NCBI GenBank assembly: GCA_030141605.1
Contig: JAQGDQ010000009.1
Coordinates: forward strand, 1,271,001 to 1,335,000
Direction: 5' to 3'
Length of the DNA: 64,000 nucleotides
Source of the DNA: Tubiluchus corallicola
Taxonomy: Eukaryota; Priapulida; Priapulimorpha; Priapulimorphida; Tubiluchidae
Under the pieces are notes generated by a model, which saw only the letters and a program-made list of their open reading frames with translations, was not told where the DNA came from and did not search any database. Both the position numbers and the translations under genes were made by a program. Below, piece after piece: positions 27,601 through 58,200 of the stretch (its first letter is position 1; each line of letters begins with the position of its first letter).

Positions 27601-30175
27601 TACAAGCTTATCATATGGACTTAACAAGCAAAGCATATGGATGAGCACAGCACATTTTATGTAAATAGCATGTGGAAGAACTTTTAGCTAAATCCCAAGC
27701 TGTTGAATTTAAATGCCTTTTTCAATTCATAAGTAGAATCACTTGGTATGTTTTTAATCAGCAGTTTATCAATCTGCAAAAACTGAAAATTATTATGGTT
27801 GTTTAACGATTTAAAATTATTTAACGATAAAAGTATAGTATATTAGAAACTAGGAATCAGGTTAGGTCAGTTTTCAATTTGAAAAAAATGTGACGGAAAT
27901 AATGACACCTAACTACTGAAAGAGCTTGATGATAGTAATAGTAGTAATAATAACAACTAGATGTGCGTCGAAGGTTCAGTTCAATTTCAGCATGTATGTC
28001 AAACCGGGCAAATACAGAAGCTTCTGCATTTGGCCTGAAGTTTTTTAACCTTTAGAGTTCATTATAAAAAGATGAAAATATGGTAATTACCCTCGCAAGA
28101 CTTTTATTAATGGCATTATATTCTTAATACATGTATGTGTGGATTCTCAACATTAGTTTTGTTGCAGCCACGAGAATTAAACTTAGCGACAAACAGTCTG
28201 CCTGTCTGTTTAGTTAGTAGCAGTACCACTGACACACACTGTTTCATTATCATAAAAAGACTAATACTCACAAGTGTTATATAAGCAAAAACTGATTTGA
28301 TTTGTACTGGTTTGAAATTAATCATCAGCTGCCTACTGACTCCTGAAAATGACTGACCCAGATTAATATCTTAGTTTAAAACCTGGGCCAACACCTGTTC
28401 TACATAGTATGACAATTTTTATTTACTTAGACCAGTAAAATTTCGTTACTGAGCTGAGGAAATTAAAGCAATTCCAGCATATCTTGCATAAACTGGGTAT
28501 ATGCCACAAATGTAGTGACATTTTAATTAATCAAATGGTAACTCCCATAAGTTACTGTAGAAAATGTCTAAAAAGTAAAAATCAGATTACATCAGACACA
28601 TGTGACATTGTTAACAAAATGTTCATACACAAACAAAACAGTAGGCAAAACCATTTTGAGTGAAGGTAGGTAAGACAGTCTGGTACACACACAACTGACA
28701 GACATTAATCTTTTTCAGGCAATTAATATCTGCCATGCCTTCTCATACTATTATCCTGAACACGATACTTCAAGTCATTTCAACGTCATACTAAGAGCTA
28801 AATGGGCCCCAGCATAGGTGGAGCAAATACATAAATGTTAACTGCTGTCCTAAATCTTAACAGCTTTGCCAAACGTCACAGAAATAATTATAATCTGATT
28901 GGACAGAAGATGACCAAGCCGTTTAAATTTTTATCAAATGGGCGAGACTTTGAACCCTGATTGCAGGGGGAGTAACATTAGGTAGAGCAGAAGGAAGTTT
29001 AATTTTAGAGGCATCCACTTAATCATGTGCAAGTTCTTTTCATTTGTGATTTTTTTCTCTAATAAACTATAAATTCTACTCTCTTAAAGGAAATATATAG
29101 AAAGAGTGCAGATTACTTGAATAATAGCAGACAAAATAAATTAACACACTTTATTTACTTCACAATTAATTCACGACATCGAGGAATGAGGATTTAAATA
29201 ATTGTAACACTGCAATAATCTACTACTCGCAACCCACCTCACTTTCAGCAGTGTTATCCAAAAGTGAGGTGGGCTATGTGTGCCTGTACAACTTAAACAA
29301 TAGCTCTTGCATAAATTAACATCGTTTCCAGAAGATTCGAGTTTAGGAATATAACCTTTGATTCGGTTTAGCCAATTCTTAGATGCACTTCGACTAACTA
29401 TCAGGGTTCATTTAGACTTATTTAGAACTTTGCAATCAACACACCTTGTTATGATTATATTTATTTTATGGAATGCACCAACTTCGGTAAGTTTCTCCAC
29501 AAGATAACCAATGAGATGATCAGCAAGCTGAATCTTCTTTACAACCTCAGGTGAATCAGGGCCAAATTGGTGGCCAGTATGATCTGGTTCATGAAAGTAT
29601 AAAGCACCAAAATTAATTGGCAGTGTTTTGTCAGTCAGCCAGTCAATGAGCAGGTCAACTCTTTCAAAGAAAGGCATCGAACTATTGTAATGAAGATATC
29701 GAAACGGACGAATTCCTTTAATAGGGGTTTCTGAACCAACCCAGAACACGATACCGCTTCGACGTGCTCTACAGTCTGACTCTTGCATTTTTGTTCGATT
29801 ACATATCTGATTTGTGATCCATATTGGTTCAGCACCCACATCAAACCATTCCGATTCAGTCCGTGTTTGAGAAAAAGTATCATTTAATGCAGGGTCATAA
29901 AACGAGTTCCCTACAATCCCATGACTTTCTTCGAATAACCCACTAGCCAAAGTAAAATGATTAGGAAATGTTTTTGTAGCAAAAACGTCTGTCGTCCACT
30001 TTGCTTTGACACCACCGATAATCAGTTTATCGAAATTTGGAGTATCCGTTTTGTTTAAATAGTCGTATCTGAAGCCATCGAAAGACACGATTAAAAGTAA
30101 TGGATGTGTTGATAAAGAGTTTATATAAATTATGAACTCTGACAGTATTAGAAACAACCAAGAAATTTTTTCCAT
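24688..30175 (-). CDS. ENPP4: ENPP4/5-like ectonucleotide pyrophosphatase/phosphodiesterase
   Basis: Type I membrane phosphodiesterase of the alkaline-phosphatase superfamily that hydrolyses nucleotide or dinucleotide phosphodiester bonds. Exons on the minus strand: 30175-29445, 27557-27436, 27279-27106, 26924-26790, 25183-25058 and 24866-24688. All junctions are GT-AG with matching phases, giving 488 residues (human ENPP4 453, ENPP5 477). A signal peptide occupies about residues 1-20. The two-zinc active site is complete: D33 (SFDGFRYDY), nucleophile T69 (TKTFPNHF), D198 and H202 (EPDHTGH), D245/H246 (SDHGM, formed across intron 1) and H345 (GTHGYDN). After the PDE domain come NPGPNNGS, a membrane helix ([19 protein letters not shown]) and a basic tail containing YLPL. 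It lacks the somatomedin-B and nuclease-like domains of ENPP1-3. ENPP4 versus ENPP5 cannot be separated here. Intron 4 holds two adjacent DNA transposons. Confidence 0.93.
25210..25622. mobile_element. Pogo-like element relic with ACTCAAA repeats
   Basis: Repeated TAACTCAAA words at the left (25241-25270) are mirrored at the right as a run ending TTTGAGATATGCGGAGTCCAC. This is the style of Tigger/pogo terminal repeats. The extreme left terminus is lost. It abuts the next element at its right end. Located in ENPP intron 4. Confidence 0.5.
25625..26637. mobile_element. Pogo/Tigger-like element, TAGACTCA family, copy 1
   Basis: Starts CAGTAGGCGCCGCTTAATAG and ends ATTAAGCGGCACCTACTG, bounded by TA at 25623-25624 and 26638-26639. 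Subterminal GACTCA / TTAATTG words occur on both sides. The 1,013 bp interior matches the element at 46522-47494 over long blocks, such as one around GTTAAGTACCGTTTTGTTTG. No intact transposase. Located in ENPP intron 4. Confidence 0.88.
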
Positions 30176-30940
30176 TGTGTTTGATTGCCAAACAACAGTA
30201 ACTAATAATTATGCGTCTGACGGTTTACTCATAATCTCACACTAAAATTTTGCCAAGCGCAACTTGACAATTTGTGGATACTAGGGCAACTTTCCTTTCA
30301 AGTCGTGGATAAGAGATGGTTTCATGGACATCTGATTTGCACTGATTTAGCCGTATCGGCTTCGACGTTGTACATTTCCTTTCAAGGGAAATTTTTTAAA
30401 ACATGTATACGGTCACTTTCCACAACTTCAACAATAAAACAAATGTGTTAGACTAAACTGAATTGTCTAAATTTCTATTTTTTGGAAAACGAACAGTTCA
30501 CGATAAGTAACAATCATCAAGTCTCTTTACGCTTAGAGTAAAATAAACAACTGTTAGTTAGTAGTCATAAGCACGAAAACAACAACATCAGTTTATGAAA
30601 TTTGGTGATTAAATTTATGTGGACCAAGTAGATATGACCAAATGTACGTAGAGCTTTGCAGTCATGTTATTCGTAACCACATACATCACATACTTGATGG
30701 AAGTGACTGTACTGATTAATAACTGATCAGATTATTTTATGTTTTTGAATTAATTAGTTTTGCAAGAGAATGCGCAGTTTGTAGTTATGTTATATGACGT
30801 GCTTCAAAAGAAGAAAAATTAACTGTACATGTTCTATTACGACTTTTAGAAAGAGCAAACACCATAAAGACATTGTTAGATTGAAGACAAGTTTCTTACA
30901 TTAATCATCAACTAGCCAAACCCCACAAAAAGAATTTTGT
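30176..30940. promoter_or_regulatory. Upstream region of the ENPP gene
   Basis: Sequence immediately 5' of the ENPP start codon on the minus strand. No distinct TATA or initiator could be chosen, and no repeat or gene is visible. Confidence 0.3.
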
Positions 30941-30944
30941 GCAC

Positions 30945-31590
30945 AAATCAACACACAACCCACACCACACCACTCCACCTCATCACACCACACTGCACCA
31001 CACAGTACCACCAAACCGCACCACACCACACCATACCACCTACACACCACACCACCCACACCATACCACTCCACCACATCACACCACACTGCAGCACACC
31101 ATACCACTGCACCACCCACACACCACACCACACCATAATACTCCACCACATCACACCGCACAGCACCACACCATAACACCACACTGCACCACACCACCCA
31201 CACCATACCACTCCACCACATCACACCACACCGCACCACACCATACCACTGCAGCACACTGCACCACCCACACACCACACCACCCACACCATAATACTCC
31301 ACCACATCACACCACCCTGCACCACACCATACCACTGCACCACACCACACCACACCACACCACCCACACACCACACCACCTACACCATAATACTCCACCA
31401 CATCACACCGCACTGCATCACACCATAACACCACACCGCACCACAACACCCACCCACACACCACGCCACCCACTCCATACCACACTACCCACACCACACC
31501 CCACACACCCTATCACCCCACCACATCATCCATAGCACAACACACAAAGCACACCACCACCACACCACATCAAATCCACCACCTCACATG
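30945..31590. repeat. CCACACC/CACCA-type minisatellite
   Basis: About 640 bp made almost wholly of C, A and T on the plus strand, with CCACACCA and CATACCACT words re-used in irregular higher-order blocks of roughly 100 bp. It runs into a short GATGAT tract near 31600-31620. Long open frames on both strands (His/Thr/Pro on plus, Trp/Cys/Gly/Val on minus) are by-products of composition. Confidence 0.9.
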
Positions 31591-37216: not shown

Positions 37217-37223
37217 GTTCAAG

Positions 37224-40200
37224 ATGGAAGTAGTGTGTGTGATTGACATTGGGATCTTGGAGCGCAAGCTTGCATTCGAGGCAATAAAGAAAGCTTGTGC
37301 TAATGTGAATGCAAAATTGGAACATGTCACATTTGAAAAGCTAGACTTTGGAGAAACTCATGTGCTAGATTTATTTTATAATGCTGATGTGTGTATAGTA
37401 GATGTGACTATCCAGGTACAAAAAACACACTGTTTCATACTTAAAATGATAATATTAGTAAGAGAAGACCCTAATGTTTAGATTTGAAAACATTTCATTC
37501 ATACAGTTAATTAAGAACATTTTACTTTTTCACTTTTTCTCATGAAAGTTTTTCTTCGTATAATCATGGCAGTCGGTACCATTAAGAAATTATACATTTT
37601 GGTGATGACAGTTAATGTATTGTTTATAAGTTACTGTTTTCTGTGTTAGTGATCAGTAAGCACTACACTGATAAGGCATAACTAGGCATTAGTAGGCATG
37701 ACTAGTAGTAGGAGTAATTTGGCATGACCAGGCATAACTAAGCAACTTATCAGCCATTATATTTTTCAGATGCAGCAAAGTGCTCTGATCTACCAGCTTG
37801 GAGTAAGAGAGAGCTTTGGCAACCGAGATAACGTTTTGATTTATCAAGACGTAGGCAATGTGGAAACTGGCAGCATGGGCATACCTCTAAAGGTAAGGAT
37901 ATAGTTTAGAACATAATTAAATATTAAATTGGATGAGATCTTTTAAGATATTTAACAAAATACAGGTAGTCGTTGACTTGTGACCTATGCAACTTACAAC
38001 TGTTCGACTTTGTGACCTCTGAACACAGCTTCAATAATAAATTATTCAAAATGAACTATAACTTTATTTAAATCACTATTTGCTTCGATAAATTCATCTG
38101 TACCTGCTGCCATTCTTAGTGCCACGTACACAACATCTTACGGAAGGGACACACCACTTGAACAAGTGGGTATGACTTGCATCCAATTTGTCTTACGACC
38201 AGGAAGGACAGATTGTGGTCGTAAGTCGACGACTGCCTGTAATTCGTTAATTTTGTTTTGTAATCTTTACTTTATACAAAACTAAGTTCTACAAAACTGA
38301 ATTTGCTAATGTTAATTTCCTAAGTATTGCCGATGTGCTTAACGGATGAACATGTGATGTTATTTCAGATGACATTTAGTGGCTACAAGTTCATCTCATA
38401 TGTCTTGTCAGCTGACCAAAAGTCAGTTGTCGTGGGAACAAGAGATCGTAACATGTCCACTAGCGTGGTGGACCATGCGGCTGCTGAGAAAACTGCCGTG
38501 TCATTGCAATGTCGATTGAAAAAGATCCTACAGCAGGTTGAGGTGGATGCTGGGTAAAGAGCTTTAACAACTTTCAAAAATTTCATGTATCATTCATGTG
38601 AGATTTTTATAGTCTTTACATATTCATGTAAAATTTATATACGTTCCAAAAACCTTTAGTATTTCTTTATTTTTTCCAGTTCAATAATTTTATTGTGCTT
38701 ACAACACGTATTAGCGGTAATTGCAAAGAATACAGTGAATATGAAAATGGAAACATCTAATTGTTTTTCACATCATGTTTGCATTGTTAGCAGTTTTATT
38801 GAACGTGTAGGCTGCCTGTATAGCTAGGTATTTGATGGTAGCTTATCACCATTAACTTTTTGTTTCCAATTTTGAAGCTATGAAAAGTAAAATTAGGTTT
38901 AAAATTGAATTTGAAGCTTCAACGTATCAAGTTAGTTAATCAGCCACTCAGTCAGTCATTAATTATGTGTTCAGGTTCCTATTCCCAATAAAGTTGAAAT
39001 TTTTGTATGAAAAATTTTGTAACTAAGAATGTATTGAATGTATTTTCGAATACTTGCAAATTTTCCTGGCCGACATCTTATCTAAAAGTGTATTCTTGAA
39101 ATACATGTGCACAATAAGTTAAAACTGCTGTTCCATAGTAAATAAAGTTAAATCATGCTGTTCCTGAAATTTGTGTTATTACAAGTAAACTTTATCAACT
39201 TTTCTTCAAGAATGCTGAATTTTGTTTTCGGTTTTTATGTTGCTAAGTTTCAGGTGACCCTTATTATCGTCTTGGTTTTTGTAAATTTTTGTAGTTTCAT
39301 ACAGAACATGTGCAAAATTGTACTAAAAAAATTTCGACAACATGGACTTGCCATTTCCATAACTGATAGAGTAAACAAGTTGGAAATTAAGTGAATAGGT
39401 CAGCAAGTCAGTGAATTGTTGTGTGAGAGAGAGGTGGAGGAAGAAAAGAAAAAGGAAGAGTTGCAGCAAGTACTCCAAGTTTTTTTGTGCATGGAAAAAG
39501 AAAGTTTGTGTTAATAAGTTACTCATTTGGCTCTTCAGGAATAACCTGTCAGAAGCCAGCATTAGCAGCAACGAAAAACTAATATTTTAGTAAATAACTA
39601 ATATTTACATAGTAAAGCTGGAATGGAGTGAAAAGAGGCATTCATAAAATTCGTATTTATGCAAAAAAATGGCAATATGTCATCATCATTAAAATGAATC
39701 ATGTAAATTGCTACCGTTTCTCGTAGTGCTCATCAGAAGGAAAAATTTTTATCGGACCTTCGCAAAGTGAGAGAAACATATAAAGGAGAAGAGCTGAAGC
39801 AAGCATTAGCTGCAATGAAGCGTCGATTGGATGATCCTAGTCTAGTGTCAGCTGATGTGATCTTGAGCATGCTTATCAGTTATAGGGAAATTCAGGTGAA
39901 ATTATATGACTAAGCTGTTATTGTTTTTGTAAGTGCACATATTTTTGTGTTTAGGAACTTCTACAGTTACAGTTGAAGCTTAAACACCTGATGTTGTATG
40001 TTTGTTGGCATGCCAAAATTTATTTGTTTAAGTTTGAGCAACTATTGCATTAATAATATGATAATCGACTTACATTAGCTTAATTGATTATGCTTTCATT
40101 TTGTACATCAGTTGTTCATCTGTAATGTGCGCTACATCAATATCGGTTGTTTAGGATTATGACTGCATGGTAGCGCTTGTCGAACAGATAGATTCCTTGA

Positions 40201-43200
40201 AACTTCCCAGTGGAAAAATTACTGATATTGTAGCAATACAACATTTATATGCATTTGCACTAAACAGGTATGTAACTTTTTACTAATTGTAAGAACATGA
40301 GGCAGTGTAGACAAATGTTTAAAAAAAATTTATTATGAAAAGATATTGATGAACATTTTTGGGGTCCCGGCAACAGAGACTCATCCTGTCATTCTTCTTC
40401 TTGTTGTGGGACTCAAAAAGGTCTACATCTTGATCATTTTAAAACAAAATGTAACAAATTTTCATCGGTGTTTTCATGGAGCTGGATTTTGAAAAAGGTT
40501 GTTGTTCCAATGTGGCAAGGAAGATGTCATATTTAGAAGAAGCTGCCTATCATTTTGAATAAAATTTTACAGTTTAACAGTAAATCATATTGCACAGCAC
40601 TAATTTAGAATTGGCACTGATGATATAGTATCCAGAAAATGACCATTCTCATTATTTGCTGGGATCTATAGTGACTTTGTATGTGTTAATAGTTGATACT
40701 TAGTAGGTATTTAGCCACAACACTAGAGTCTAGCACTAGTAAACTCATTTGAACTTCATAAATATTTACAGACGTAACAAAACTGGTGATAGAGAGACCG
40801 CATTAGACGTCATAGAAAAGGCTTTGAAAAAGGACGAGACTCCGGCTCCGGACATACTTTGCCTTGCTGGACGGATATACAAGGACAAATTTGTTGAGTC
40901 AGGATACACAGACAATGAGAGCAGAGATCAAGCTATTCACTGGTTTGTTTAGCTTTATCATCATTGTGTTTAGATAATGTAATTTGCCTTGATATTTCAG
41001 CCTAAAAAGAAGGGACAAGCTACTTAGCATGTTTGGTTGGATTTACTGTTATGACTTGAACTTAGAAACATATAATAAAGAACTTAAAAACTAATAATAA
41101 TATAGACATATATAAAACCTGACTATAAACCATGAAATAAATTTATACTGTTAGTGTGCCCAGATTTTCAAGTGCAGTGGTAGACACGATTCACTTGAAA
41201 ATTATAACTTCACTGGTGGACTTCATGACTTCGTAAGCGTATCGTGGTTTTCCGTAAGTGCGTGCTGCTTAAAGTAGTTCAAACTTCTGCAGCTTACCTA
41301 ATGAATGTTCGTGCAAAAATTTCACAAAATTAACAATTTAATTTTTTGTAAAAACTTATTCTGCTTTAGACAGAATTTGACAGTGCACTGCTTTTTTTCT
41401 GTCTGTGAATGATGTCATTGTTGGAAGAATTGGTACTCAAAATGGGAGCACCCAAGCATGAAATGATCACAACTTTATAGACATTTTACTAATTACACAT
41501 GTCGCTTATCATACTTTTATTACTAAATTCTTTTAACGTTTTTTGCGACATTAAAATATGCCTAACTTCCTTACCTTTCCTTGATACAAAGCTTTGTAGC
41601 AGTTCTTTTCAGAATTCCTCGCTTTCTGAGCCTGTTTAATACGTTGTTAAACAATATACTTGATAAGTGAATGATTGGTTTGAAATTTCAGGTACAGGAA
41701 AGGTTTTCTAGTCCAACCGAATGAGTATGCTGGTATTAATCTTGCCACCTTGCTAGTCATTGCCGGAAAAGATTTTTCAACTGACCATGAACTGCAGCAA
41801 ATAGGTTTGTAATTATTTCTATTTTTAGTTAGTTTAGACATATTTATTGCACATCCTTTGAACAAAACAGTAAATTAAAACTGATACAAAAAGTTCTCTT
41901 TATACAGAGATAATACATATACTACAAGTGTATAATTAGTACGTAGCAATATAACAAGCATAATAGAAAATAGAAAAAGACAGTCAAACGATTGAACAAC
42001 ATAATCAACTGAACATATTGAATTTTGTTCAAGTTAAAACTTTTAGATTCTTTAATGTTATTGTTTAGTTAACGTAAACTTTTTGATCTATTTTTTTTAT
42101 TGGAAACTATTTGCTAATACAGGTTTAAATTTCATTCTTATTCAGGAATTAGTTTAAAGTTTTTAGGCTTACTTAGCAATATGTTTACAGGATTGATATT
42201 GAACAACCTGATTGGTCGCAAGGGCAGCTTATGTTCATTGCAGGACTACTGGGATGTCGCCACTTTTTTTGAGATAAGCGTTCTTGCCGAGGACTACAGT
42301 AAAGCTGTTCAGGCTGCCGAGTGCATGTTCAAGCTGCAACCTCCAAAGTGGTGAGTTTATGCTTGTTTATATTGTTGAGAAATGTATTGCATTTTCATCC
42401 AAATGTGGTAGAAACAATTCTGCTAACTCATTCGCTTAGCTTAGGTTAGATTCTTTTTAACGTGCATAGTCCCACCACAGATATCTGCATTAAGTATGAC
42501 CTGTTTTAACTGTTAAATAACAGCTTGTAGAGTTTCATGTATAAAAATAGTCATGTTCTCTCAGTAAGTATGATAGGTTAGGTGGATGCCTTTTCTGTTT
42601 TTGGAGTTTTTATCAAATGGCACAGTTCAAGTTGTTTTGAGGAGTGCATCTGGTAGCCAGTTTTATGTCTGTTGCATCCATTTTATGCCAGCCAGTTTAA
42701 TAATTAGTAATACTTCCACATACAAGAAATCTGACACAATACAGAAGGATATCCAAGAATTGACAGTCTTCACAGTAACCAAATGCTTCGCCTTTCTTGG
42801 AGAAGCATTTTACCTCGTGAAAATGATTTTAGATACTTAGCATCATCGCATTTCTTAGCACTTGGGTCACTCAGCAGTGTCAATGAAAATCTGCAAACGT
42901 GATGGCCACAGCTCAAGAAATTTTCAGAGATGTGAATGGAAATCTGACAGATTTTAGAATTTTAGAAATCTTAGAATTTTTATCCCAAAACTTTGTTAGT
43001 GCATCACCGAACAATCTAGGTAGTGCCTCCTCAAAATCTTGCACAGCGCATGTATAATTCGTGGGCAGAGAATTAGTCCAATTGAGACCTGTTTATTTTT
43101 AAATTGAAGGTGGTTGTTAGGAAATATTTTTATACTCTTGTGATTTTGTAACATCTGCCATGTTATGAATCTTTGCTCAGATAATTTTTGTTTTAGTTGT

Positions 43201-46200
43201 AAAGTTTAGGAAGCACTGAATATTTCTAATGTCATTCAGTAGTTCGGTATTTCTGATTCCTCGGTGTTAAGTAGTGGACACAGTGGAATAAAGGTTTAAC
43301 TCTTGGTAGGTACGTGAAGTCAACAATTGGGAATATCACACTAATTCAGACATTTCGGAAACAGAGCGAAGCAGCACCACGCAGCCATGAAGAGGAACTC
43401 TTTCACTTTTGGCTGGAATTTTTCTTGGAGGGAATTGAAGAGGAGCAACACAAGAGTGTACATTTTCCAGTAAGTATACTGCAGTAGCAGTTAATGATTT
43501 AAAGCAATTAGTGATCAACACCTAATTAAAAGTAATAAAATTTAAAAAGGCTGTTTTCGGATATTCGCATCTGCGTGCTATGTAGATTTCTAGACGAGTA
43601 TTCATTGACACCCTGCAGAAATTGCACTGGCTACAAATAAGATGTTACAGAAAAGTACAAAGATGTTTAAACTTTCTTATCCGGATTAAGTTTAGTAGGG
43701 AATATCTTTATTTAGTCAATAACAAGTGGTGGACTTCACGGATAAAAAGAACACATTACGTAGTCTTCAGGATTGCAGTCCTTTTTATTAGTCAATGAAG
43801 CTGTACTGCTTACTAAATTTCTATAACTATCGATTTTTTTGGCTTCAACTTTCTTATTAAAAACTTTATTTTAAACAGGTTCTTATCTTAGAGCCAACAA
43901 AAGTCTACATGCCTAGTTATGTTACTGTAAATTTGGAAACCGGTGACGCTCTTACGGAAAACATTCAAAAGTCCATTCGTATGTGGCACGTGGCACCAGA
44001 GAATCAGTCCGGGTTGCACGAATGGCTGTTTACTGCTGACTCTATAAAAAGTGTCAGGTAAACTATGTTGTTAATTCTGTCACGTGTATTCACTATTCAT
44101 TAATGTTTTGTTACATAACAAGTATTAATAGGTTCTCAGATCACATTACTATTTGCCAAGGTTGTCATTTATACGATAATTATCAGAATATACGACAATT
44201 TGTGAGTTTAACCCATGCAGAAATGAGACTGTGCTATAATTTAGATATGAAACAAAACCAAAAGTATGAAAAAATTGTGCACTGAAAACATTTAAAACAG
44301 TACTGCTAAGTGTTAACCACTGGGTAGTAAATAAGTGTTGATTTCAATGTAATCCGAAGAATGCTGGTTATTATGATCACAGTTTCCTGAAGAAAAGCAG
44401 TAATTTCAAAAATGAATGGTGATGACAAAGCTTGTTTCTACACAATTGAAATTATTGACATTTTACCCCTTTTCGATAAATTTAATTTTACCCTAGTTAA
44501 TGCCTCTTTTTGGTGTTATAGTTACTTACGTAGTGCTTAATTAGGCAATAATAATTATTTGCTTGCAAATATGCAATATTTTTGGATTTTGGACGAAAAT
44601 ACGATAATTTGGCAGAAAATGCGATAATTGTTGACCCCCAATACGATAATCAGCATCAACAAAACAGCAGCTCTGCCATTAATTAGTGAATTTTATGTTA
44701 CTAGTATTAGATGAGTGATTTAGATTTTTTCCAGACTGATTTTGTGATTATATTGTTACAAATGAATTTTTTTAGTAAATACCTTTTCACATATTGTAGC
44801 CTAAATAGTAATTCAAGATCTGTTATAACATGTGTCTGTAAGCCTCTTTGAGTACAGTAATTTGACTAAATAAATCCATGTCAGATATTTTACATCATTT
44901 GTTATGTGTTGCCAGTTGACCTAACGACAGTTACTTACCCTACATTAATATTAACATATGTTTTTTAAAGTTATTGCCTCTTATTAAAAAATGTATTTTT
45001 TTGCAAGAAATAGCCAGTTTCATGTACGCATGCATTTATTTTCAGTTTGTATCGTCGAGATGATCGCTGTGTTTATCTTTATGTTCATCAAAACTCTGAC
45101 GATTTTCAAATGTTTTTTCCTTCTGATGTATTGAGAAAACGGTGAGCGGGCAAGTTAATTCATCTCTTGTTGTATCAGTCGAACTTTTTGCCATCATCTT
45201 TCATACCCAATTTCAAATTCCAAATTGTGAACAAAATTTTTTACTTCTTTTTTGTATTGTGTTTTATGTTTAGTTTACTTAGTTCACTTTTAAAATATGT
45301 TACGCATTTACAAACACCATTTTGATTTCTGTTCACAAGATAATCTTGATGCATTGTGTAAGACAGCTGATCATGTTTGAAATGTACATCTACAAAAATG
45401 GGCAAAGAAAGGTTCAACTATAGTTTTTGAATCAGTCTTTGAAATAGGTATGAATCGGAAAACTATTTTCAAAAAGTATGCATTGACTTTGTGCTCAGAA
45501 AGTTTTGATATTTTGTGTTTCAGTTTTTATGATATGGTGCTAGAAATGACTGCAGATGTCCAGGACTGCATAACCGATCTAGATTCTGATCTATCCACTG
45601 AGCCAATTCAGGTTTGCTTTACTGATTAGTGTTCCTTGCTGACTTTGCAAAGTGATGAGCATGTCAGTGGTCATTAGATACATTTTTTGCTTTATTACAC
45701 ACCTGTGGTCTTTCACAACCATATTTTGTTTGTTGCACAATTCAGTTTTTTGTCTCAGTGTTGCTGTTCTTTTTGTGATTATTATTGTTTTTGTCGTATG
45801 GATTAACCCTCGTAAATTCTCTTACAGTTTGAGTATGAATTGGATGATGGAGGAAGAAAGATTGTGTTAGGAAAAGGTACCTATGGTGTTGTATATGCAG
45901 CCAGAGATCTCACCACTCAGGTCAGGATAGCCATAAAAGAAGTTCCAGAAAAAAATAAAAGGTATCGTCAGACCTGCCAGCCATTTGATGTAAAAGTGAA
46001 TGCGAAATGTAGAAACACCGTGTTTAAACTCGTCCCTGAGAGTCCAGGGGGAAATTATGCTCCAGAAATTTCTGCTTTTTTTGGGTTTGAAAATCAAATT
46101 TTCAAAAAAATTCAAGCAAAAAATTAAGGTAATTTTGCATACTACTGAGCTTTCTTATGCTGTTATTATTCCAGTTAAAAATGCTTTTTATGTAAATATG

Positions 46201-49200
46201 TTCTTTTTGTACATTTAAAAAGCTCAATAACATTCAAGTGCTTAATTTTTAATAATTATAATACCATGAACACTACTGTATTAAGTAGAATAGTGCTACT
46301 AATTGTGTTGTGGTTAGTACTGATGGCAGTTAAAGCCAGTTGATTTGCAAATTTGCATGTGAAGTTGCAAAATGTATGAGAATTGAAATTTTATGAGTGT
46401 GTGAAAGCCTTAAAATGAGTGTGACACGTGCCTAATGCATCAGAGTTTGCAAGTTTATATTGTGTGCCTGACAACAATGTGTAAAATGGCTGTTCTAATG
46501 TGCTGTTTCATTAGATAAATACAGTAGGCGTAACTTAATAGATTCACGTTTAATAGACTCTGTCGCTTAATTGACTCAATCGCTTGGAACGGGACTCTTC
46601 TATTCAGATATACATAAAAATTATCGGTAATTGACTCAAATAACTCCGCATGATTGATTCAATTTTTTTCCTTCACCTATTTAAAATAAGATATTTGTAA
46701 GTGCCCAAAGACCCTTTCCTATTTTTATGTCATCTTTACTTCCCCTTTGTGCACTATGTATACAGAAACAATCATGTTAAGTACCGTTTTGTTTGTAAGC
46801 AGGTACGTTTATCATGCTCTAATACACTAGCGTAGCGGTTTTGCTTTGAATCTATTACCTGCTCGCCCACTGTTACCCAAAGAATTTCTGGAAGCTAAAC
46901 ATTTAATCACTTGCCTAGCGGTTTCCTTTTGATGCTCTCGTTGCAAATCACGCTTTCAGGCTTAATGAGTTTACAGTCAAAGATGCAGGTACAGTATAAT
47001 CAGCTGGTATTCCTTGTGAGTTACAAGAGTAAACATCATACAGCAAATAAGGGCAATGTAAGTGAGCAGACGATTCAGAACTGTTTTAGTCATGCACAAC
47101 AACAGATTTTCAACGTTTTTATAATTACGAGAACTCTGTGGGCCAACTTCTTCGCGAGAAAATGAAGCAGCCAACTTTGAAGGAATTTTTGTAATTTTTG
47201 CAAATAAACAGACTTAGAAAAGTCTGTGATTTAGAAAAGTATACTTTTTAATTTATTGCTAATTCACTTGTATAAATTAATATTTTAAAATATTTTTTCT
47301 AATTTTTAACTGCACAAAGGAATTTAGGCATTATTTCATTTCTAAAATTCATTAAAAACCTTTGCAGTGCATAGTAAACTGGTGACTCATACTTCTATAC
47401 CTGTAATGCTACACCCATTGGTTAATAGGTTCCATCGGTTAATTGGGTCAAAACACGTCGGCACCAAAGTGAGTCTGTTAAGCGGCGCCTACTGTACATA
47501 ATTATATGTCATGGATTGCTTGTTACGTCTTATGCAACCGTTGCATAAGCAAGCCTTCCATTTAAAAAACAGTCTACCTTAAAAGCAAATTTACTAACTG
47601 CAGTTGTCCCTGCACTAGTATGTAATCAAAATTATAATGGTAATTGTAATGTAAAATTAATTAAAATTAGTATGTAATGGTAGTAGATGTCTGTGACTCA
47701 AGATGGGAAATCTCTATAATTTCCTATGTGTACTAACAACAGCTTATTTGTCTGTTTATGATAGTGAAGTGCAGCCCTTGCACGAGGAGATAAAACTTCA
47801 TTCCCGGCTCAGTCATCGTAACATTGTCCGTTATCTAGGATCAGTTTCACAAGAAGGCATGTTTAAAATCTTTATGGAACAGGTGCCTGGAGGTATGTGA
47901 AAAATTCCAGAAAATAGAGTTTTTTTTAATGTCCAACAACAGCCGACACAACTGTTTTCATAAAAGCTATGACAGTGTAATGTGACAATGTGCATGTCAC
48001 TAAGAATGTCTATCAATGTTCTTAGTAGAGGTGTTGTGTTTTTTAATAGATCTTGTTTAATACTTTCATTGTTTTTTGTTTTGGTTACAGGAAGTCTGTC
48101 AGCATTGCTCAGGTCCAAATGGGGTCCATTAAAAGATAATGAATTAACAATTTCATATTATACCAAGCAGATACTTGAAGGATTGAAATATCTGGTATCA
48201 ACTTTTCAATTTATAAGTATTGTCTTTTGTGATAAGATTTAAGCGATTACTTGTGTAGTGTTTATGTATTACATTTACACTAGTTTAAGAAAAAACGTTT
48301 TTTAATGAATTTGGATTAAATGCAACTGTTCTACATTTTAGGGCAAATTTTCTGGACTTATAATTCTTATAATTTTCGATATTCTTATTAATATGTAGGG
48401 GTGAGCATTCTCTATCAGAAATCAAATTCGAATCGAACTAAACTTTCGACTTTCGATGTTGAATCAATCCGAATTGAATTCAAATTCATTTTTAAAGATT
48501 TTTGAATAAATTTTCAAATTATTAGTAAAAAGATCATGCACATTGCTTGCTAATAATGTGTTTAAAACTTGTGCACAGAAATCGCAGCTAAATTGCCTGA
48601 TGTTTCAAACGTTCTAATGATAAAAAACATATGCAGCTGAACTGGCAAATGATGCAAATTGAAAATTTTAGGCTTGAATCGAATTCAAATTGAAAAACTC
48701 TTCCAAACTCGAACATTCAATGCTCACCCTTATTAGGTGTCATAGATTAACTTTTGTAGAATTTTCTTTTATTATGTAGTCACGGTTGTAATGTTTTTTA
48801 TTTTTGATAGCATGATCAAAAAATAGTGCACAGAGATATCAAAGGTGACAATGTGTTGGTAAACACGTACAGTGGTGTGTTGAAGATTGTTGATTTTGGC
48901 ACAAGTAAACGTCTAGCGGGCATGAATCCTTGCACAGAAACCTTCACAGGTAGGATAATATGCTAACTGATATATTGCTAATTGAATATATGATAATTTT
49001 CATCATTTTACTATGTATGTTTGGAGGTTATCTCTTTATATTATCCAAATTTAGAACATCCAGATATCAAGATGCTTTTGTTTCATTAGCAACCTCCTGT
49101 TTTAATAAAAAAGCGTCTTCATAGACTCAAGTTATTGTGAAATGAACTTTTTAATCTAAAATAGTTTTAATCTGAAATAACCTATATGAAAATAGATTTT

Positions 49201-52200
49201 TATATGAGCCATATCATTTGAATTCATATTTGAATTTATTTTTTTATTTTATTGTTATATTGTACTTGTAATTGTAAAAACTGTATACACTGTGTGCTGT
49301 AAGTTTGTATAAATTAAATATTTAGCTTACTAGCTTTTTCTGTGGCATATTGTAACACATCACATTTAGACTAAACTGTCTCTGCTTAATATGTATTAGG
49401 TAGTTGATTTCAATTTCACCTGGTTGCCTAATAACTATGGATATATAAGTCAACATTAATAGTTACACTTATGACTTTCCAATATTATGAATCTCATTTA
49501 CAATTTTACAGGAACATTACAGTACATGGCACCTGAGGTAATAGATAAAGGACAGCGGGGTTATGGAGCAGCAGCAGATATTTGGTCTCTGGGTTGTACG
49601 GTAGTAGAAATGGCATCTGGCAAGCCTCCCTTTATTGAGGTGCATTTACAATTGTTTTAATTAATGTTTTGATATAGATTGACTAGAATGAATGTCAGTG
49701 TGCAATGAATATTCACGGACATTGTGGAAAAGAAATGCTTAAAAGCTGGTTCAGGTATATCCAAAAACTTTTAAATGTTACCTAGTTTACAACTGAATTG
49801 TTGTGCATTTGTAATGAGTTCTTTTTTGCATATCCAAAAATTCTTTAACGTTATACAGCTTGCAAATGAACAGTTGTACATTTGTGATGAGCTTTTTTGT
49901 AATTTTATTTAAGAAACACTTATTTTGATTAGCAACTTCATACGTTTGTTTTTATACTCCCCCTGTGTAAAGCAATCATATAGCACTGCATACTCAAACA
50001 TAGTATAATGTTGTTTTATTTGTATTTATCACAATACAAAATGTGTTATGTTATTATAATGTTATAGGCGTAATAGTTGAACCCATCCCATTCTGTAGCA
50101 ACAAATAAAGGCTCTATTATCGTGCTGATGCTAGCTGTGATTTTTCATGTTTTATAGCTGGGGTCCCCACAAGCAGCCATGTTTAAAGTTGGTTTCTATA
50201 AAGAGCATCCCGAGATACCAGAATCCATGTCGGAAAACGCCATAGATTTTCTAAAAAGGTAAGTGTTTTTATTCAACATGGCTTGCTTAATTAACATTTT
50301 ACTGTATAAAATATGCGTCGTAAGTTTTGTCATTTTCTGTAATACATTCGAATATTTTTGTGGTGTCTGTTCCAGGTGTTTTGAACCCGACCCAGAGAAA
50401 AGACCGTCTGCTGCCACTTTGTTGGAACATCCATTCATTAATCCGTAAGTTATCAATTCTTATTTTGGTAAAATTTGGACATTCTGTATAATTGTTAAAC
50501 AAATTAAGTCATGATGCTAAAGCTGTAAAAAAGTAAAGATGTCTTTTACTATTGCACGATTGAATGAAAAATAAAAATAATGATTTTAGTGGATAATTAA
50601 TCTTAGTTTGGATTCTTGAATTGATAATATCTTTATGCCAATGCTTGTTGGTTCATAAATCTACAATGAATCTTGAACTTGACAAAATAATTTTTTCCAA
50701 TCTAATATCACTACTGTATATGTGGATGCTGTTTTGTATTACTATTACAACTCACAAGTTTGTCTTTTTTCAGCAGCCATAGGAAGAAGAGCAAGATTAA
50801 ACCACGGTTACAAATTCATGAGTTTAACAGGAGTGCATCAGGTATTTGATTGTCTTATTCAACCTGGGAACTGCTCAGTTTTTTTCCTGATAATTTTGGT
50901 GGATGTCAAGATGCTAGATGCTTCATTAAGACAAAATTTGTTTTGATAAGAAGGTCGCGTTAAAAAAAGATAATCGCCAAAGCTTGTTCATCTCAATTTG
51001 TTTGTTTTTGTAATGAATTTGCTTTTGTTTTAATGTGCAGAGTGTCCAGATGTCTCAGGTAAGTAAGTCATTAATTCCTTTTTTACTAAATTAATTAATC
51101 AATTAGTGGCCTATATTTTGATAAATCAAATTCGCGTGCATGACTTTTTACATGAGAAATAAATTTTACTTTTATATTAATATGATACGATCGGGTTCCG
51201 CAGTAACTGTTATTGCTCAGTAAGTTTGGCTCCTGTAGCATTTGTGTTTTTTGTTGCTTGATAGTCAAGTTAACTAGCCTTTTAAGTTACATGTATTTTT
51301 GTTCCGTTATTTTTTCTATTTATATTGAGTTAGTTAAAATGCGAAAAGTGATTCCTGCATCTTTTTTTCTGCTTATCTACATTTCAATGTACATTTATTA
51401 ACCTTTATGAATTTCATTTCCTTTGCACTCATGTTTTGGTACATGTGTTAAAGTATTTTTTGTTTTGCATCCCTATTGTAAGTGTTGTGTCTGCAATCTT
51501 ATATAAGCCTTACTAGTATACTCTGCTTTGATCTGTATTTTGCATAGTTATTGTGGCTTTACTGTATTTAATTTTGTAAATTTCGTTTTTTCTTCCGTGT
51601 TGCAAAGTCGTGCAAACTCAAAATATTCAAATCCTCTGCTTAACAGTAATAAATTGCGTATTTTATTTTTGATGGGCTCATGTGTAAATGAAATTTTGGT
51701 TTATAAAATCATATTTGACTTTACTATGTGTCAGTCTATGCAGAAAAGGCAGAACATTATTTTTCTTTGTGTTATTTGTTAATAATTGTTTAGTTCCAGC
51801 AAAGAGCGGGTATCCGGGGACTCCCTTGACTCCAGAGAACGAAGATGAGTTGGGAAGACTTCCAAGAATCGGCAGTGCAACATTTTCGTCTCCTCCAGCC
51901 ACGTAAGTGAATCCTGCTTTTGTTCTATTGGCTGTTATGTCTTATTATGTTACATGTTGTTGTCTACACTTAGGAGTATTTTGTGTAATCGCTGATTTTT
52001 TGTTTTTACATAATTTCATGCATTTTTGCTCGTAAAAATTAATAAACTTTAGGGGGAAATTAAATGATTTTAATGAAAACAATTTATTTTCTGAGACAGC
52101 TATTTTTTCACTTTGCTGTATTTACTGAACAAAACAGAAACAGTGCATTTTTGTTTGGTTGTGTGTAACTTGGCATTTTAACTTATCTGCAAATTTGTTA

Positions 52201-55200
52201 TTGTTGATTGAATGATTATTTGCTTAGAATGTACTAAATCTCAAAACTTTGAATTGACTAATTTATTTATGTTAACTAACTTATTACATTTAACCAAACA
52301 CATGGTACTTGTGATGTTCACTGATGCTGTTGCAGAAGAATTCCTATGTTGTAGCTTTTTATTGGTATTTATGGTCATTTTTACTGCTAGTATTACAGCC
52401 TTGGTAATGCTACAGTATGAATAAGTATTTTGCGTAGCTTGTAACATTCATCATTTCGTATTTACTGTATGTCATGATATTCGGTTTACAAAAACATAAT
52501 GTTGGGGCCCCCTCGCCTGGGCGCCACAAGGGGGGGGGGGGCGATGTCCACAAAGACTGCCGAGCAGTTACCCTCTGCTTGAGTATGCTGCATACCCAGA
52601 AGTAACTTGACACAGAACAGTTAGAGAAAAGCTTAGAGTTTATGGTTAAACTATGCTGTACCTCACCTACTATAATAACAGCTACTTGACCTGCCTGAGC
52701 ACTAGAAAGAGCAGCACCTGCTTGACAAGACAAGACAACATGACAGAGATGGCCTAAATTTGTGTGCACTCCTTTTATACTTATAATTGCTACACATTGA
52801 AACAAGTTAAGCGTGCCCGCAACAATATCTTTAACGACACACTTTTTCCCACTGCATCCTAATGTCATTTAAGCTTTCGTTTGGCTTACAAAGGCATAAT
52901 ATATTGAACGACTTTCTTTTTTCCTAGCGTATCCTAAACATTATTTAAACCTTCATTTGTAGATTCACGGTTTAATAATTTTGTATTATTTTAGAATTAA
53001 TGAGCGAATGGACAGTCCTGATCTGACTGCCCAGCTCAGCACTGCCACGCCCGCATCACCAGAGAATGAAGGTTTCTTTATGCTGAAGAAAGATTCCGAG
53101 AGACGATTAACTCTCGTACGGGTGCTAGAGGATGACAGAGATAAGGTACGAGATAAATTTGTCAAATGCCTAAGTGCCGCTGCTGTTTCCTGAATTTAAT
53201 GAAATTTAGACGATGTCGCGAGTTTGGTTGTACAGTGAAAATGATTGCAGTAAGAGTCCTTGCTTAATTTTGCTAATGCATTTCAGCAAAATGAGACATA
53301 AAGCAAAACATTGCTAAACAAAGCCAAGACTTCCACAGGAAGTAATTTAAAAGAATTGAGATATGTTCCAAAGGCAAAAATCAATGCTGCTTAAATCAAT
53401 CACATAAATTATACATTTAATTATAAGTTTTATTCACATTTCTACTGATTAATTTCTTTTTGTTTGCTTGAATTCACTTATCATTCTTACCTCTACTTAG
53501 CTAGCGGTTTCTTTTTTGTTAATGTTGCAGCTCTAGGTAGTGGCTAAACACTATGTAGTGAAAGCCAAGCCCTGGCAACCTCGGGACAACTCTGTCTAAT
53601 TGCTATTGCAGGCAAAATTCTGTCCATAAATTTACACCCAGGTGCAGATAAATCGCAAATCCCTTTATAAAAATTACCAGCATTAGCAGTCAGTGTGGAA
53701 GCAAAAATATAAATAATAACTTACTGTTTTACATTATTAGTGAATTTTTAGATCAGGATAACACAATATGAACTATTTTGATGCTTAAAGGAAGATAAAA
53801 TGTTGCTGATAAAATAAAAAAAATGTGTTTTTTGAGCAAAGTAAAAATATTATCAAAATGAAACGTGTATCGTTAAGTGAAAAAAGTTAACAAATTTTCA
53901 GCATAGTTAGCACAAAATGTTGCTAGAAGGGGGAGTTGTTAAGCGAGGACTTACTGTAATTTTATCTGTTTGTAGATATGTGATGTGTGGCATAGGATGG
54001 TACTAAATGATGTGAAGACTTCGGTGCTAACAGTTGACCACCTTCATGTATTAATTTACGGACTGCAAGAGACTATACAAAGTAATCAAAAGCAACCGGT
54101 GCATGACACTATCAGTAAGTTCATAGAATTATATTTGTAGTGAGCATAGAGCAGCAGTAATTCAATTTGACAAAAAATTTGACAATTTGACAATTTGATT
54201 TCTTGGGTAAAAAAAGCCAGAAAAGTTTATTTTAGAAAGCCTATGCACAAATAATATGTCAGTAATTATCATGACTTGTAAAAAAACATTAAAACTTTAA
54301 TATGGGCCTTCAAATTTTAGTATATCATTGTGGCTAATGGTGGAGCCTCAAACCCTCAACATTTTCTGGCTGTGACAAAGCAAAGCATAATACACCAATC
54401 TTCAGCTTTTGCAGGGTAAAGTTCCCTACTAACAATTTTCAGATCTGCCCATCCTGGCACCGGTCCTGCACTTCGTAACCTTACAATTGTTAAAAATTGA
54501 CTATTCGGCTGTATATTTACTAGTATGACATAAATTTCTTATCACTTTATTACATATTACTAGTTTCACTGAAGGAAGATGTTCGTGGAGAAAAAGTTGC
54601 CATGGAGCACATCAAAGTTGCTCTATATCTCTTCCAAGATGCTGTTAACGAGGTGCTGAAGAAACACAACATAAAACCACATTGGATGTTCGCCATTGAC
54701 AATCTCATACGTGATGCCGTAACTTCGGCAATGCAGATCATGTTCCCAGGTACACAGTTTTCTTAATTGCTTGAAGCCTTTGTAGTTGATTGTTTGTTCA
54801 ATTAAGTCATAAGTTTTGGTTTAGCCACAAATTTACCATCATAAGGCAATCAAGACCATTGTACAATTGTGCATGTGTGTGTGTGCGTGTGTGTTTGTGT
54901 GTGTGCGTGCGTGTGTGTTTGTGTGTGTGTGTGTGTATGATTTATGTGTGTTTGTGTAAAATTTGTATGTGTGCATAATTATGAGCATGGAATTACTTAT
55001 ATTAAATTTTAAAGTCATTTTAAGTCTGTTAATAGAGAGTTTGATGCAGTTGCGAGTGCTGTTCCCCGTGCAGAGGTCTGCATTTAACTGTTTCTGTCAC
55101 TGTGAATGGACACCTTCCTGCACTTGAAAGGAAAAGCTAATCTTAAATTATAGCTCAAAACAATCTACTTGTAATTAATGACAGAAAACATTCTATATTT

Positions 55201-58200
55201 TCGATAATGACTTACGTGAAAGAATTATTACCACAGAAACAATTTCGTGTTCGGGATTCTTCATTGCTACATGCATTTCACTATCTTTTAGTTAAATGGC
55301 CATTAACCTCTGCATTTCAGAAATGTGTTGCACAAAAAAAAAACAGTTGGTTTACCTCTCAGTTCAATGTGTTCAGTTGTGACTGTGCACACACTTGATA
55401 GCTCGGGGGTGAGTGCAGCAGTTAACTTGAAATTTGAATTTTAAACTTTTAATTTGTCGAGTTTTTACATATTACGCTGAATGTTGTACAGTGTAGCACT
55501 ATACTCTAGTTTTCGCTTTCACAAACACGTGCGACACACTTGTGGAATGCTTGTGCTGTTGAAAATCCTGTCATCACTAGCCTTCCTTGCCTGACGTTAA
55601 TTAAATTTTTTAATCTATTAATTAATTATCAGAAATGCTTTGGCATTATTATAGTTGTTAAAATGTATACTTTTACCGTACTTCAAAGTGCCATAGAATA
55701 TGAAAAGTCATCCTGTTTTCCTTTAACATTTCATGCTGTTCATTGAGTTTTCATATAATCAGTAATATGATTTCAGAATCATGTAAGTGCAGCTGCTTAT
55801 GGAAAACTGTTTATTTGTCAAGATGTGTATCTGCTTCAGTCTGCTGATGATTTTCTTAATCCTAGTAAAACTTCAGAACTGATAAGTAAAAAAATTGTAA
55901 CACATTGTTACAAATTGCTGTAAAAGTCATTTTTAACTTGCAGAAGGCTCATTTTTTCATCCGGCTGGTGATTCAGAGACGGAAGAGTCTGCTGCATCAG
56001 GAGTGTCTACACAAAACTCTGTCCAGGCACAAGCACTGCAGGCTACGTATCAGGCAGGGGTATCTGCTGAGCTGAATAAAAAACTCAAAACTTTGGCAGA
56101 AACTAACCAAAGGTGCTTTTGTTTTTTTACTTCTCTGTATTGTTATAAAAATGTGAAGGAACACAAAATTTTTCAGTCATTTTAGTTACTATTTACTTGC
56201 TTTTTTTCTACATTCTGTAATGATATCTTTACATATAATTTTTTTTACAAATATATCTTTTTTATATAAATTCAATCAATTTTAATTTCGTGTCTCTCAT
56301 GACATCTGAAGAACTTTTTATTTAATGTGCATATGGTTTAGTTAACTGTCAGAGGTGAATCTTATTAAACAAAGTTGTGGCTGCTTGAGCCGCTTATTAT
56401 GTAAAGAGATAATCATATCAATGAACTGGTTATTTTATGCTTATAAAATCTTAAAGAATTTTGAAAGTTAATACTTCTATTTTTATGTGAATTTATTTTT
56501 ATTGACATTTTACTGACTATAACTCAGTAAAATATGTAGCCATCAAGATGTAGTTCTGAAAACAAACTGAATTTTTCAGTCTCATGAAGCAGTTAATAGA
56601 AGTTCAGCAACAGTTTCAAGGAGTGCTCACTAGTTATATCAAAGAGAAAGAATTAACAATGTCACTACTAAAGTAAGTTTAGTTGAGTTTTTACTGATTG
56701 CTTACTGAGTTGCTTTTCAAATGCAGTAGTTTCATTGAGATCGTTTTGATATCACCAGCAGTTTCTTGCATGTGTAAAATGCGAATACTAATATTTATCA
56801 GAGACTTCTGAATTGTGCACAAAGCAAAAACATACCTTTGTCAAATTAATGTCAAATTAAGGTGTCTGCTATGCTGTTTTGTATTTATATGCAATTATAT
56901 GTAAAATGATAGTAAGCCTGTTTGAGTTTACATTAGCTTTTGTTGTCCAAATAATGCTATAGAGCATTTTAATTGCTTGTTATATGTAGCGTTCAGCATA
57001 ATATGCCAGACATGGTCGATTCGCCCAAGACTGCTATTCGTGACATTGACGAGAACCTGGTGTCTTGGCTCAAATCACTTGGTTTGGATGTTCAAAGTAT
57101 AAGCAAGGTATAGTGAAGTAAATGAATTGAATGTGATTAGCAAATCAGGTTGCACTTTCTTTTTAAACTGTGTATTTCTTATTGTCGCAATGAAATGCTT
57201 TCAAATACGATGTATAGACGAAATCTGCTTTTAAGACAACCGTACATGCATGGCAAAATTTGATAGTCTTGCAGATGACGGAATCTGTTTGGTAAAAGTG
57301 CCAACCTGGTTATTGCAAAATTAGAAATCACAGATTACAAATTCGTGTGACGGTTATCTGCACTCTGGAAAGAAGTTGTAAAACAAGCTAAAAGTTCTGC
57401 TTTCCACCACTAGGAATATAATACTGGAAATTTAATATGTAGTTACCTGGACCTAGTTTACGTGGGTTGCTAAAATTGCCAAATGTCTTTATTGGTATAC
57501 ATTTACATGTATTTATGTATTTACATGTATTTTTTTATTGAACATTAACACTCATGGTTGATTCTAGGTTGGTGAACTTTTTTAAAATCTTATTGTTTTG
57601 GTTCATTTTCCTTTTTTACGTAACATAAATTTACTCCTTTTATTGCTGTGCCGTGGTTAACAAATTATTTTTCTTCCTGTAGTTTTTAGCTGAAGGCTAT
57701 TCAAAAGAAGATGTCCTAGAGCTAATGACGAGAGAAGATTTAACCAAACTAGGTTTAAAGTAAGTAAATGTTTTATATGTGTGTTTTCCATAATCATAGC
57801 TCATATTAGCAGTAATTTTACTTGCAATAAATAATTCATATTTTAACTGCTGCAGTTTGAAAAAGCAGAAGAACTGTCTGAGATTAAAGCAAATGTTTTG
57901 AACTGGTATGTGTATAACTAGTTAACTCTGAGGAAGTGCATATATTTTAAACAAGATTGTAGATACAGTTTAATTCTTTTCATTTTTTCTTAGGGGCGGT
58001 CATTGTTGTAAAGTGTGGAGAGCGATTCTCGAGTATAGATACCAAGAGCGGTGGCAGGAGAATATCGCGTACAAGGCACCGTCTGGTGGTGGCGGTGATG
58101 GGAAGCGCAATCGCAGTTTGTCCACCGGCTCAGCCATCTCGCATCTTCCACCGAAGGGTAAGTGTACAGAAGCAAGTAGGGTAGTTCCTGGCTTCGATGC

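What the first reader, a model, noticed from the sequence alone, without database searches (positions are those of the whole stretch)
50774..51902. 18-nt microexon toggles a 14-3-3 docking motif in an ASK-type MAP3K
Seen: exon 50774-50841 ends in codons for N-R-S-A-S plus one base; exon 51794-51902 starts V-P-A-K. Direct joining gives RSASVP, an exact RSxSxP mode-1 14-3-3 consensus. It lies just after the kinase domain, where human ASK1 has RSISLP with Ser967. Between them is an 18-nt exon with strong splice sites that inserts ECPDVS exactly between S and V and breaks the motif. Known: 14-3-3 bound to phospho-Ser967 holds ASK1 inactive. Inferred: regulated inclusion would give a splice form that escapes 14-3-3 restraint. 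This switch is not one I know of in ASK kinases.
Basis: partly seen in the sequence, partly recalled or inferred. Interest (0 to 1): 0.85.

Follow-up and report, generated by a model that had tools for sequence, protein, structure and literature searches.

The report
Tiny exon inside ASK kinase's 14-3-3 site
In an invertebrate stress kinase of the ASK family, an 18-base candidate exon sits exactly inside the site where 14-3-3 proteins are expected to hold the kinase off, so skipping or including it could switch that brake on or off; the exon looks real, but no RNA or species comparison yet shows that it is used as a switch.

Summary
The gene is an ASK-type MAP3K (Pfam ASK_PH and MAP3K TRAF-binding above cut-off), the only copy found. 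Nineteen modelled exons join in one frame up to an unresolved last end. Skipping 51041-51058 gives NRSASVPAK, which lines up with human ASK1 RSIS-L; inclusion gives NRSAS-ECPDVS-VPAK.

The exon is probably real. Its donor is the best of 23 scored. In 14 kb of modelled intron it is the only 3-30-nt pair (length divisible by three) of that summed strength; shuffles give 0.02 or 0.08. Among the first 100 of 265 similar genome-wide pairs, after dropping repeats, 29 of 54 others have lengths divisible by three (p = 0.0016).

"Toggles" is not shown: no RNA, no relatives, and strong sites could mean constitutive inclusion. "Breaks" is too strong: fewer than half of proven 14-3-3 sites have Pro at +2, and Arg(-3)-x-x-Ser stays. 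New here: the downstream acceptor is a tandem TTTAG|TTCCAG whose distal use would delete exactly V-P. UGC motifs and a long AG-free zone weakly resemble neuronal eMIC microexons.

Best reading: a real, plausibly regulated microexon that weakens the 14-3-3 site.

The parts
51041..51058 (+). candidate 18-nt microexon, encodes E-C-P-D-V-S between S and V of the motif
   Evidence: phase 1/1, no stop, best donor of 23 scored, acceptor rank 7/23 (own) or 13/23 (generic); intron matches only itself
50774..50841 (+). upstream exon (68 nt), [22 protein letters not shown] + 1 base; NAGNAG acceptor (distal 50777 would drop one Ser); donor CAG|GTATTT scores 4.68 (generic) and 7.64 (own matrix)
51794..51902 (+). 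downstream exon (109 nt), [36 protein letters not shown]
51789..51799 (+). tandem acceptor TTTAG|TTCCAG|; distal AG (exon from 51800) would delete exactly V-P of RSASVP
   Evidence: leave-one-out score 5.05 proximal; 6.0 distal; in-frame AG within 12 nt at 6 of 22 acceptors, so not rare
51020..51040 (+). microexon 3' splice-site region with TGC at -21 and -5; nearest upstream AG 56 nt away
45828..50444 (+). kinase-domain exons (45828-45961, 47765-47892, 48091-48194, 48811-48949, 49512-49639, 50158-50258, 50376-50444)
   Evidence: Pkinase 2.1e-68
39727..45611 (+). TRAF-binding / TPR / ASK_PH exons of the same gene (39727-39895 to 45524-45611)
   Evidence: MAP3K_TRAF_bd 4.7e-131, ASK_PH 1.2e-40
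52995..53200 (+). following exon, start of the HisK-N-like C-terminal domain (3' end of the exon not resolved)
   Evidence: PF20302 26.1 bits, under its 27.8 cut-off; profile positions 1-34 of 132 matched
37217..37415 (+). probable N-terminal exon (ATG at 37224, [23 protein letters not shown]...), edges read by eye, junctions not worked out
   Evidence: likeness to the start of ASK proteins is recalled

Best explanation
The window holds the only ASK-type MAP3K gene found in a bilaterian, probably protostome, genome. A real 18-nt microexon lies in the phase-1 intron that splits the 14-3-3 docking motif between the phospho-Ser and its +1/+2 residues. Shown: anatomy, frame, splice-site strength, motif alignment. 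Inferred: the microexon is an alternative exon. When skipped, the kinase carries RSASVP, a full mode-1 site that, once phosphorylated, binds 14-3-3 and is held inactive as in human ASK1. When included, +1/+2 become Glu-Cys, the consensus is lost, 14-3-3 affinity falls, and that isoform signals to JNK/p38 more readily. A second handle, a tandem acceptor that could delete V-P, acts on the same two residues.
For: Exact in-frame anatomy. ASK identity; its ASK_PH region matches only this gene in the genome. Motif aligned with human ASK1 RSIS-L. Splice-site pair unlikely by chance. Genome-wide TGCAG-N{3,30}-CAGGTAAGT: 265 hits against 26 for the backwards control; of the 100 that were listed, after dropping the ASK exon itself and 45 members of four repeat families, 29 of 54 have a length divisible by 3, p = 0.0016 (a laxer automatic grouping gave 24 of 47 with the ASK exon in), so a good part of such structures are probably real in-frame microexons. 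The two halves of the split consensus (RSAS / VP) are both kept, so skipping restores the human-like motif; a constitutive insertion would leave no reason to keep V-P next to the junction (inference). 14-3-3 exons lie on two contigs; by eye, Lys49/Arg56 are in the one I translated and Arg127/Tyr128 in the other (position numbers recalled). UGC near the 3' splice site and a long AG-free zone (56 nt, rank 5 of 23) fit eMIC microexons, and the donor is not weak, as in mammals rather than flies (PMC8797185 passages).
Against: No RNA evidence of inclusion or skipping. No relative was available, so conservation is untested. A very strong donor beside neighbours that look weak by the generic matrix (donor 50842 at 4.68; acceptor 51794 at -2.87, the lowest of 22; by the own matrix both are above the median) could mean constitutive inclusion. 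Pro at +2 is absent from more than half of proven 14-3-3 sites. SRRM_C (PF15230) gave no match at E 0.001 or 10, without a positive control. TGC within 35 nt also occurs at 7 of 22 other acceptors, and eMIC exons usually have weak 3' sites, which this is not.
Confidence: 0.38

Rival explanations
1. The microexon is real but constitutively included. The species' ASK always carries RSASECPDVSVP; 14-3-3 control is kept through the remaining R-x-x-S core or lost.
For: Donor CAG|GTAAGT is the best of 23 scored and the acceptor is average or better; inclusion pairs donor 50842 with a nearer acceptor (199-nt intron instead of 952). Sites without +2 Pro are common.
Against: V-P is kept exactly where skipping would rebuild the human-like motif; chance of Pro at one given linker position is roughly 5-10% (inference, not computed).
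Confidence: 0.33
2. Cryptic pair: the 18-nt stretch is never, or hardly ever, spliced in; a chance decoy in an ordinary intron.
For: No transcript evidence; the finding was picked after reading a whole window; in the whole window 2 (own matrix) or 4 (generic) other pairs reach its summed score; chance matches to the pattern occur genome-wide (26 for the backwards control).
Against: Expected 0.02-0.08 such pairs in all 14 kb of this gene's modelled introns, 1 found; sense strand, right phase, no stop, at the motif junction.
Confidence: 0.14
3. The microexon is alternative, but its main effect is not on 14-3-3: it inserts an acidic/Cys segment that changes phosphorylation (for example S-A-S-E makes a minimal CK2 site at the -2 Ser; recalled consensus) or another contact of the linker.
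For: Inclusion puts Glu at +3 of the first Ser of RSAS and keeps R-x-x-S. The -2 Ser of 14-3-3 sites is often annotated as phosphorylated (PMC4495292 passages).
Against: The insertion falls on the bond that separates the phospho-Ser from the +2 Pro of the mode-1 motif; no direct evidence for other partners.
Confidence: 0.15

Closest known systems
Human ASK1/MAP3K5 14-3-3 site (pSer966, Ser967 in older numbering; RSISLP, the last Pro recalled)
   Same: ASK family, same place just after the kinase domain, RSxSxP in the skipped form
   Different: No splice control of this site showed in the titles and abstract starts listed; human control is described as phosphorylation (PDK1) and dephosphorylation (PMC8705584 passages)
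eMIC/SRRM3/4-dependent neuronal microexons
   Same: very short, length divisible by 3, UGC near the 3' splice site, long AG exclusion zone, donor not weak as in mammals (PMC8797185 passages)
   Different: acceptor not weak; neuronal use unknown; no PF15230 match in this genome (search without positive control)
Crustacean Na+/K+ ATPase alpha-subunit with variable N-termini
   Same: a 27-residue N-terminal stretch carries predicted 14-3-3 sites in a paper on alternative splice variants (PMC3793950 passages; that this stretch is the spliced segment is my reading)
   Different: there the variable stretch carries the site; here a microexon would split an existing site

Membership tests
ASK-type MAP3K (MAP3K5/6/15) | ASK kinase PH domain and TRAF-binding region before the kinase | tested here: met
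   PF19039 1.2e-40, PF13281 4.7e-131, PF00069 2.1e-68, all above cut-off
ASK-type MAP3K (MAP3K5/6/15) | HisK-N-like domain and C-terminal SAM | tested here: inconclusive
   PF20302 26.1 bits against a cut-off of 27.8 on a truncated model; tblastn matches to the C-terminal end of recalled ASK1 at 57689-57760 (E 3.8) and 57989-58048 (E 0.032)
mode-1 14-3-3 site at the ASK1 Ser967 position | RSx(pS)xP just after the kinase domain | tested here: met
   skipped form RSASVP; alignment to 4BIB and 4BF2 runs to RSIS-L/RSAS-V. A search with the linker region alone found no ASK1 chain at E up to 10, so the placing rests on the alignment anchored in the kinase
mode-1 14-3-3 site at the ASK1 Ser967 position | phosphorylation and 14-3-3 binding | not testable with these tools
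   needs protein work
alternatively spliced microexon | 3-30 nt, in frame, consensus splice sites | tested here: met
   (sites scored, not shown to work)
alternatively spliced microexon | both inclusion and skipping seen in RNA | not testable with these tools
   no RNA data held
eMIC-dependent neuronal microexon | UGC near 3'ss and long AG exclusion zone | tested here: met
   TGC at -21 and -5, AG-free 56 nt, rank 5 of 23; TGC within 35 nt also at 7 of 22 other acceptors
eMIC-dependent neuronal microexon | weak 3' splice site | tested here: not met
   rank 7 of 23 (own) or 13 of 23 (generic)
eMIC-dependent neuronal microexon | eMIC domain in the genome | tested here: inconclusive
   PF15230 no match at E 0.001 or 10; it rang in 0 of 14 control genomes at 0.001 and, under cut-off, in 2 bacteria at 10, so there is no positive control
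eMIC-dependent neuronal microexon | neuronal inclusion | not testable with these tools
   no RNA data held

The most novel reading that the evidence does not exclude
Invertebrate ASK has a splice-level brake release: a regulated (perhaps neuronal, eMIC-type) 18-nt microexon, helped by a tandem acceptor that can delete V-P, makes a stress kinase isoform that escapes 14-3-3 restraint without any phosphatase step.
Probability: 0.25. Interest if true: 0.75.

Novelty: new variant of a known kind. Interest (0 to 1): 0.5.

Why it matters
Release of ASK1 from 14-3-3 is described as a phosphorylation event. A microexon placed between the phospho-Ser and the +2 Pro would make that release a cell-type property set at splicing, giving some cells (neurons, for example) a lower threshold for JNK/p38 stress signalling. 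It is directly testable with RNA-seq and two peptides.

Tried and rejected
Paralogue comparison: none, the ASK_PH region matched only this gene at E 0.01 (a missing match does not prove absence). Second allele or haplotig for conservation: none matched. Longer exons ending at the same donor: of the AGs inside the intron, the 4 that give a longer exon of length divisible by 3 all bring stops; one shorter option of 9 nt (AG at 51048-51049, DVS) is open. Special status of the tandem acceptor: 6 of 22 acceptors have an in-frame AG within 12 nt, 3 of them at exactly 6, so it is not unusual. COX1 for species naming: PF00115 gave no match. let-7 found over cut-off, bantam under its cut-off at E 1.2e-8: bilaterian, probably protostome; species not identified. 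Papers: (MAP3K5 + microexon) listed 2 papers with one occurrence of each term, not opened; one search listed 2; in one of these, PMC5431906, ASK1 occurs once, in the reference list, unrelated. Structure prediction was not used: it would not settle a linker insertion.

Full report
What is there. The window is a piece of a 343.5-Mb assembly of 2,344 contigs. let-7 is present over its cut-off and bantam matches over its full length at E 1.2e-8 but under its cut-off, so the animal is bilaterian and probably a protostome; the species was not identified. An ASK-type MAP3K runs on the + strand. Further exons upstream and downstream were seen but not joined. Pfam gives MAP3K_TRAF_bd 4.7e-131, ASK_PH 1.2e-40, Pkinase 2.1e-68, and HisK-N-like just under cut-off on the truncated end. 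In the PDB the best hits are human MAP3K5 chains. The ASK_PH region matches only this gene in the genome.

The candidate exon. Skipping yields NRSASVPAK; including 51041-51058 yields NRSASECPDVSVPAK; both are phase 1/1 and open there. In the alignment with human ASK1 the query ends HEFNRSASV against NEYLRSISL, so the motif sits where human Ser966/967 is. The linker region alone finds no ASK1 chain at E up to 10, so this placing depends on the kinase-anchored alignment.

Is the exon real? Scored with a matrix from the gene's own 22 donors and 22 acceptors, the microexon donor ranks 1 of 23 and the acceptor 7 of 23; with a generic recalled matrix, 1 and 13 of 23. In 21 modelled introns (14,037 bp) it is the only pair of 3-30 nt, length divisible by 3, with that summed score; dinucleotide shuffles give 0.02 (own) or 0.08 (generic) on average (100 shuffles). 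In the whole window on both strands, the own matrix gives 3 such pairs (1 +, 2 -) and the generic one 5 (4 +, 1 -), so the summed score alone is not unique; asking that both sites be as good leaves only this pair. Genome-wide, TGCAG-N{3,30}-CAGGTAAGT occurs 265 times against 26 for the backwards control, repeats included. Only 100 of the 265 were listed; 35 of these fall in one repeat family. After dropping four repeat families (45 rows) and the ASK exon, 29 of 54 have a length divisible by three (1/3 expected, p = 0.0016); an automatic, laxer grouping gave 24 of 47, ASK exon included. Short in-frame exons of this type therefore seem enriched in this genome. The intron matched only itself. I put the chance that the exon is used at about 0.86 (judgement).

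Is it a switch? Not shown. For: both halves of the human-like consensus are kept on either side of the insertion, as expected if the skipped form is used (inference). Against: a very strong donor can mean constant inclusion; by the generic matrix the neighbours are weak (donor 50842 at 4.68; acceptor 51794 at -2.87, the lowest of 22), though by the own matrix both are above the median. A new point is the tandem acceptor TTTAG|TTCCAG at the downstream exon: the distal AG scores slightly better (6.0 against 5.05) and would remove exactly V-P. In-frame AGs within 12 nt follow 6 of 22 acceptors, so this is not rare.

Would inclusion release 14-3-3? Human ASK1 is held by 14-3-3 at pSer966 (967 in older work), a site phosphorylated by PDK1 (PMC8705584 passages; PMC7700312 passages). 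Mode I is RSX(pS/T)XP, but Pro at +2 is found in fewer than 50% of proven sites (PMC4495292 passages). Inclusion keeps Arg at -3 and changes +1/+2 from V-P to E-C. Lower affinity is likely; loss is not certain. The genome gives seven 14-3-3 exon matches on two contigs, which I read as two genes, one epsilon-like and one zeta-like; these names are by eye and recall.

Who might regulate it? [quoted passage not shown] in flies they also have weak 5' sites, in mammals not (PMC8797185 passages). Here: TGC at -21 and -5, AG-free for 56 nt (rank 5 of 23), strong donor, acceptor not weak; TGC within 35 nt also at 7 of 22 other acceptors. PF15230 found nothing in this genome at E 0.001 or 10. It rang in none of the 14 control genomes at 0.001 and under cut-off in two bacteria at 10, so there was no positive control and this does not show absence.

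Novelty. Ten literature searches ran. I saw titles and abstract starts only, and five lists were cut (12 of 54, 15 of 20, 8 of 100, 20 of 218 and 15 of 16 papers). No listed title or abstract start tells of a splice switch in the ASK 14-3-3 site. The nearest case I met is the crustacean Na+/K+ ATPase, whose variable N-terminus carries predicted 14-3-3 motifs (PMC3793950 passages). The library lacks most subscription journals, so this is not proof of novelty.

Noticed in passing
G000, 35 of the 100 places listed: A repeat family with the unit TGCAGTGTGTGAAYGCCTGAGTTACTCCAATCTACAGGTAAGT, which carries an acceptor-like and a perfect donor-like sequence 32 nt apart; could seed spurious or exonised short exons.
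   Followed up: no
window 50769-50776: NAGNAG acceptor (TTCAGCAG) of exon 50774 that would add or drop one Ser just after the kinase domain.
   Followed up: partly
window 51059-51068: Tandem donor GTAAGTAAGT; the second one would make a 22-nt exon and shift the frame.
   Followed up: partly
window 30885-31535: Long CAC/CCA-rich simple repeat, open in several frames on both strands.
   Followed up: no
window 29408-30208 (-): Exon that reads like an ectonucleotide pyrophosphatase/phosphodiesterase (ENPP) N-terminal part (family name recalled, not searched).
   Followed up: no
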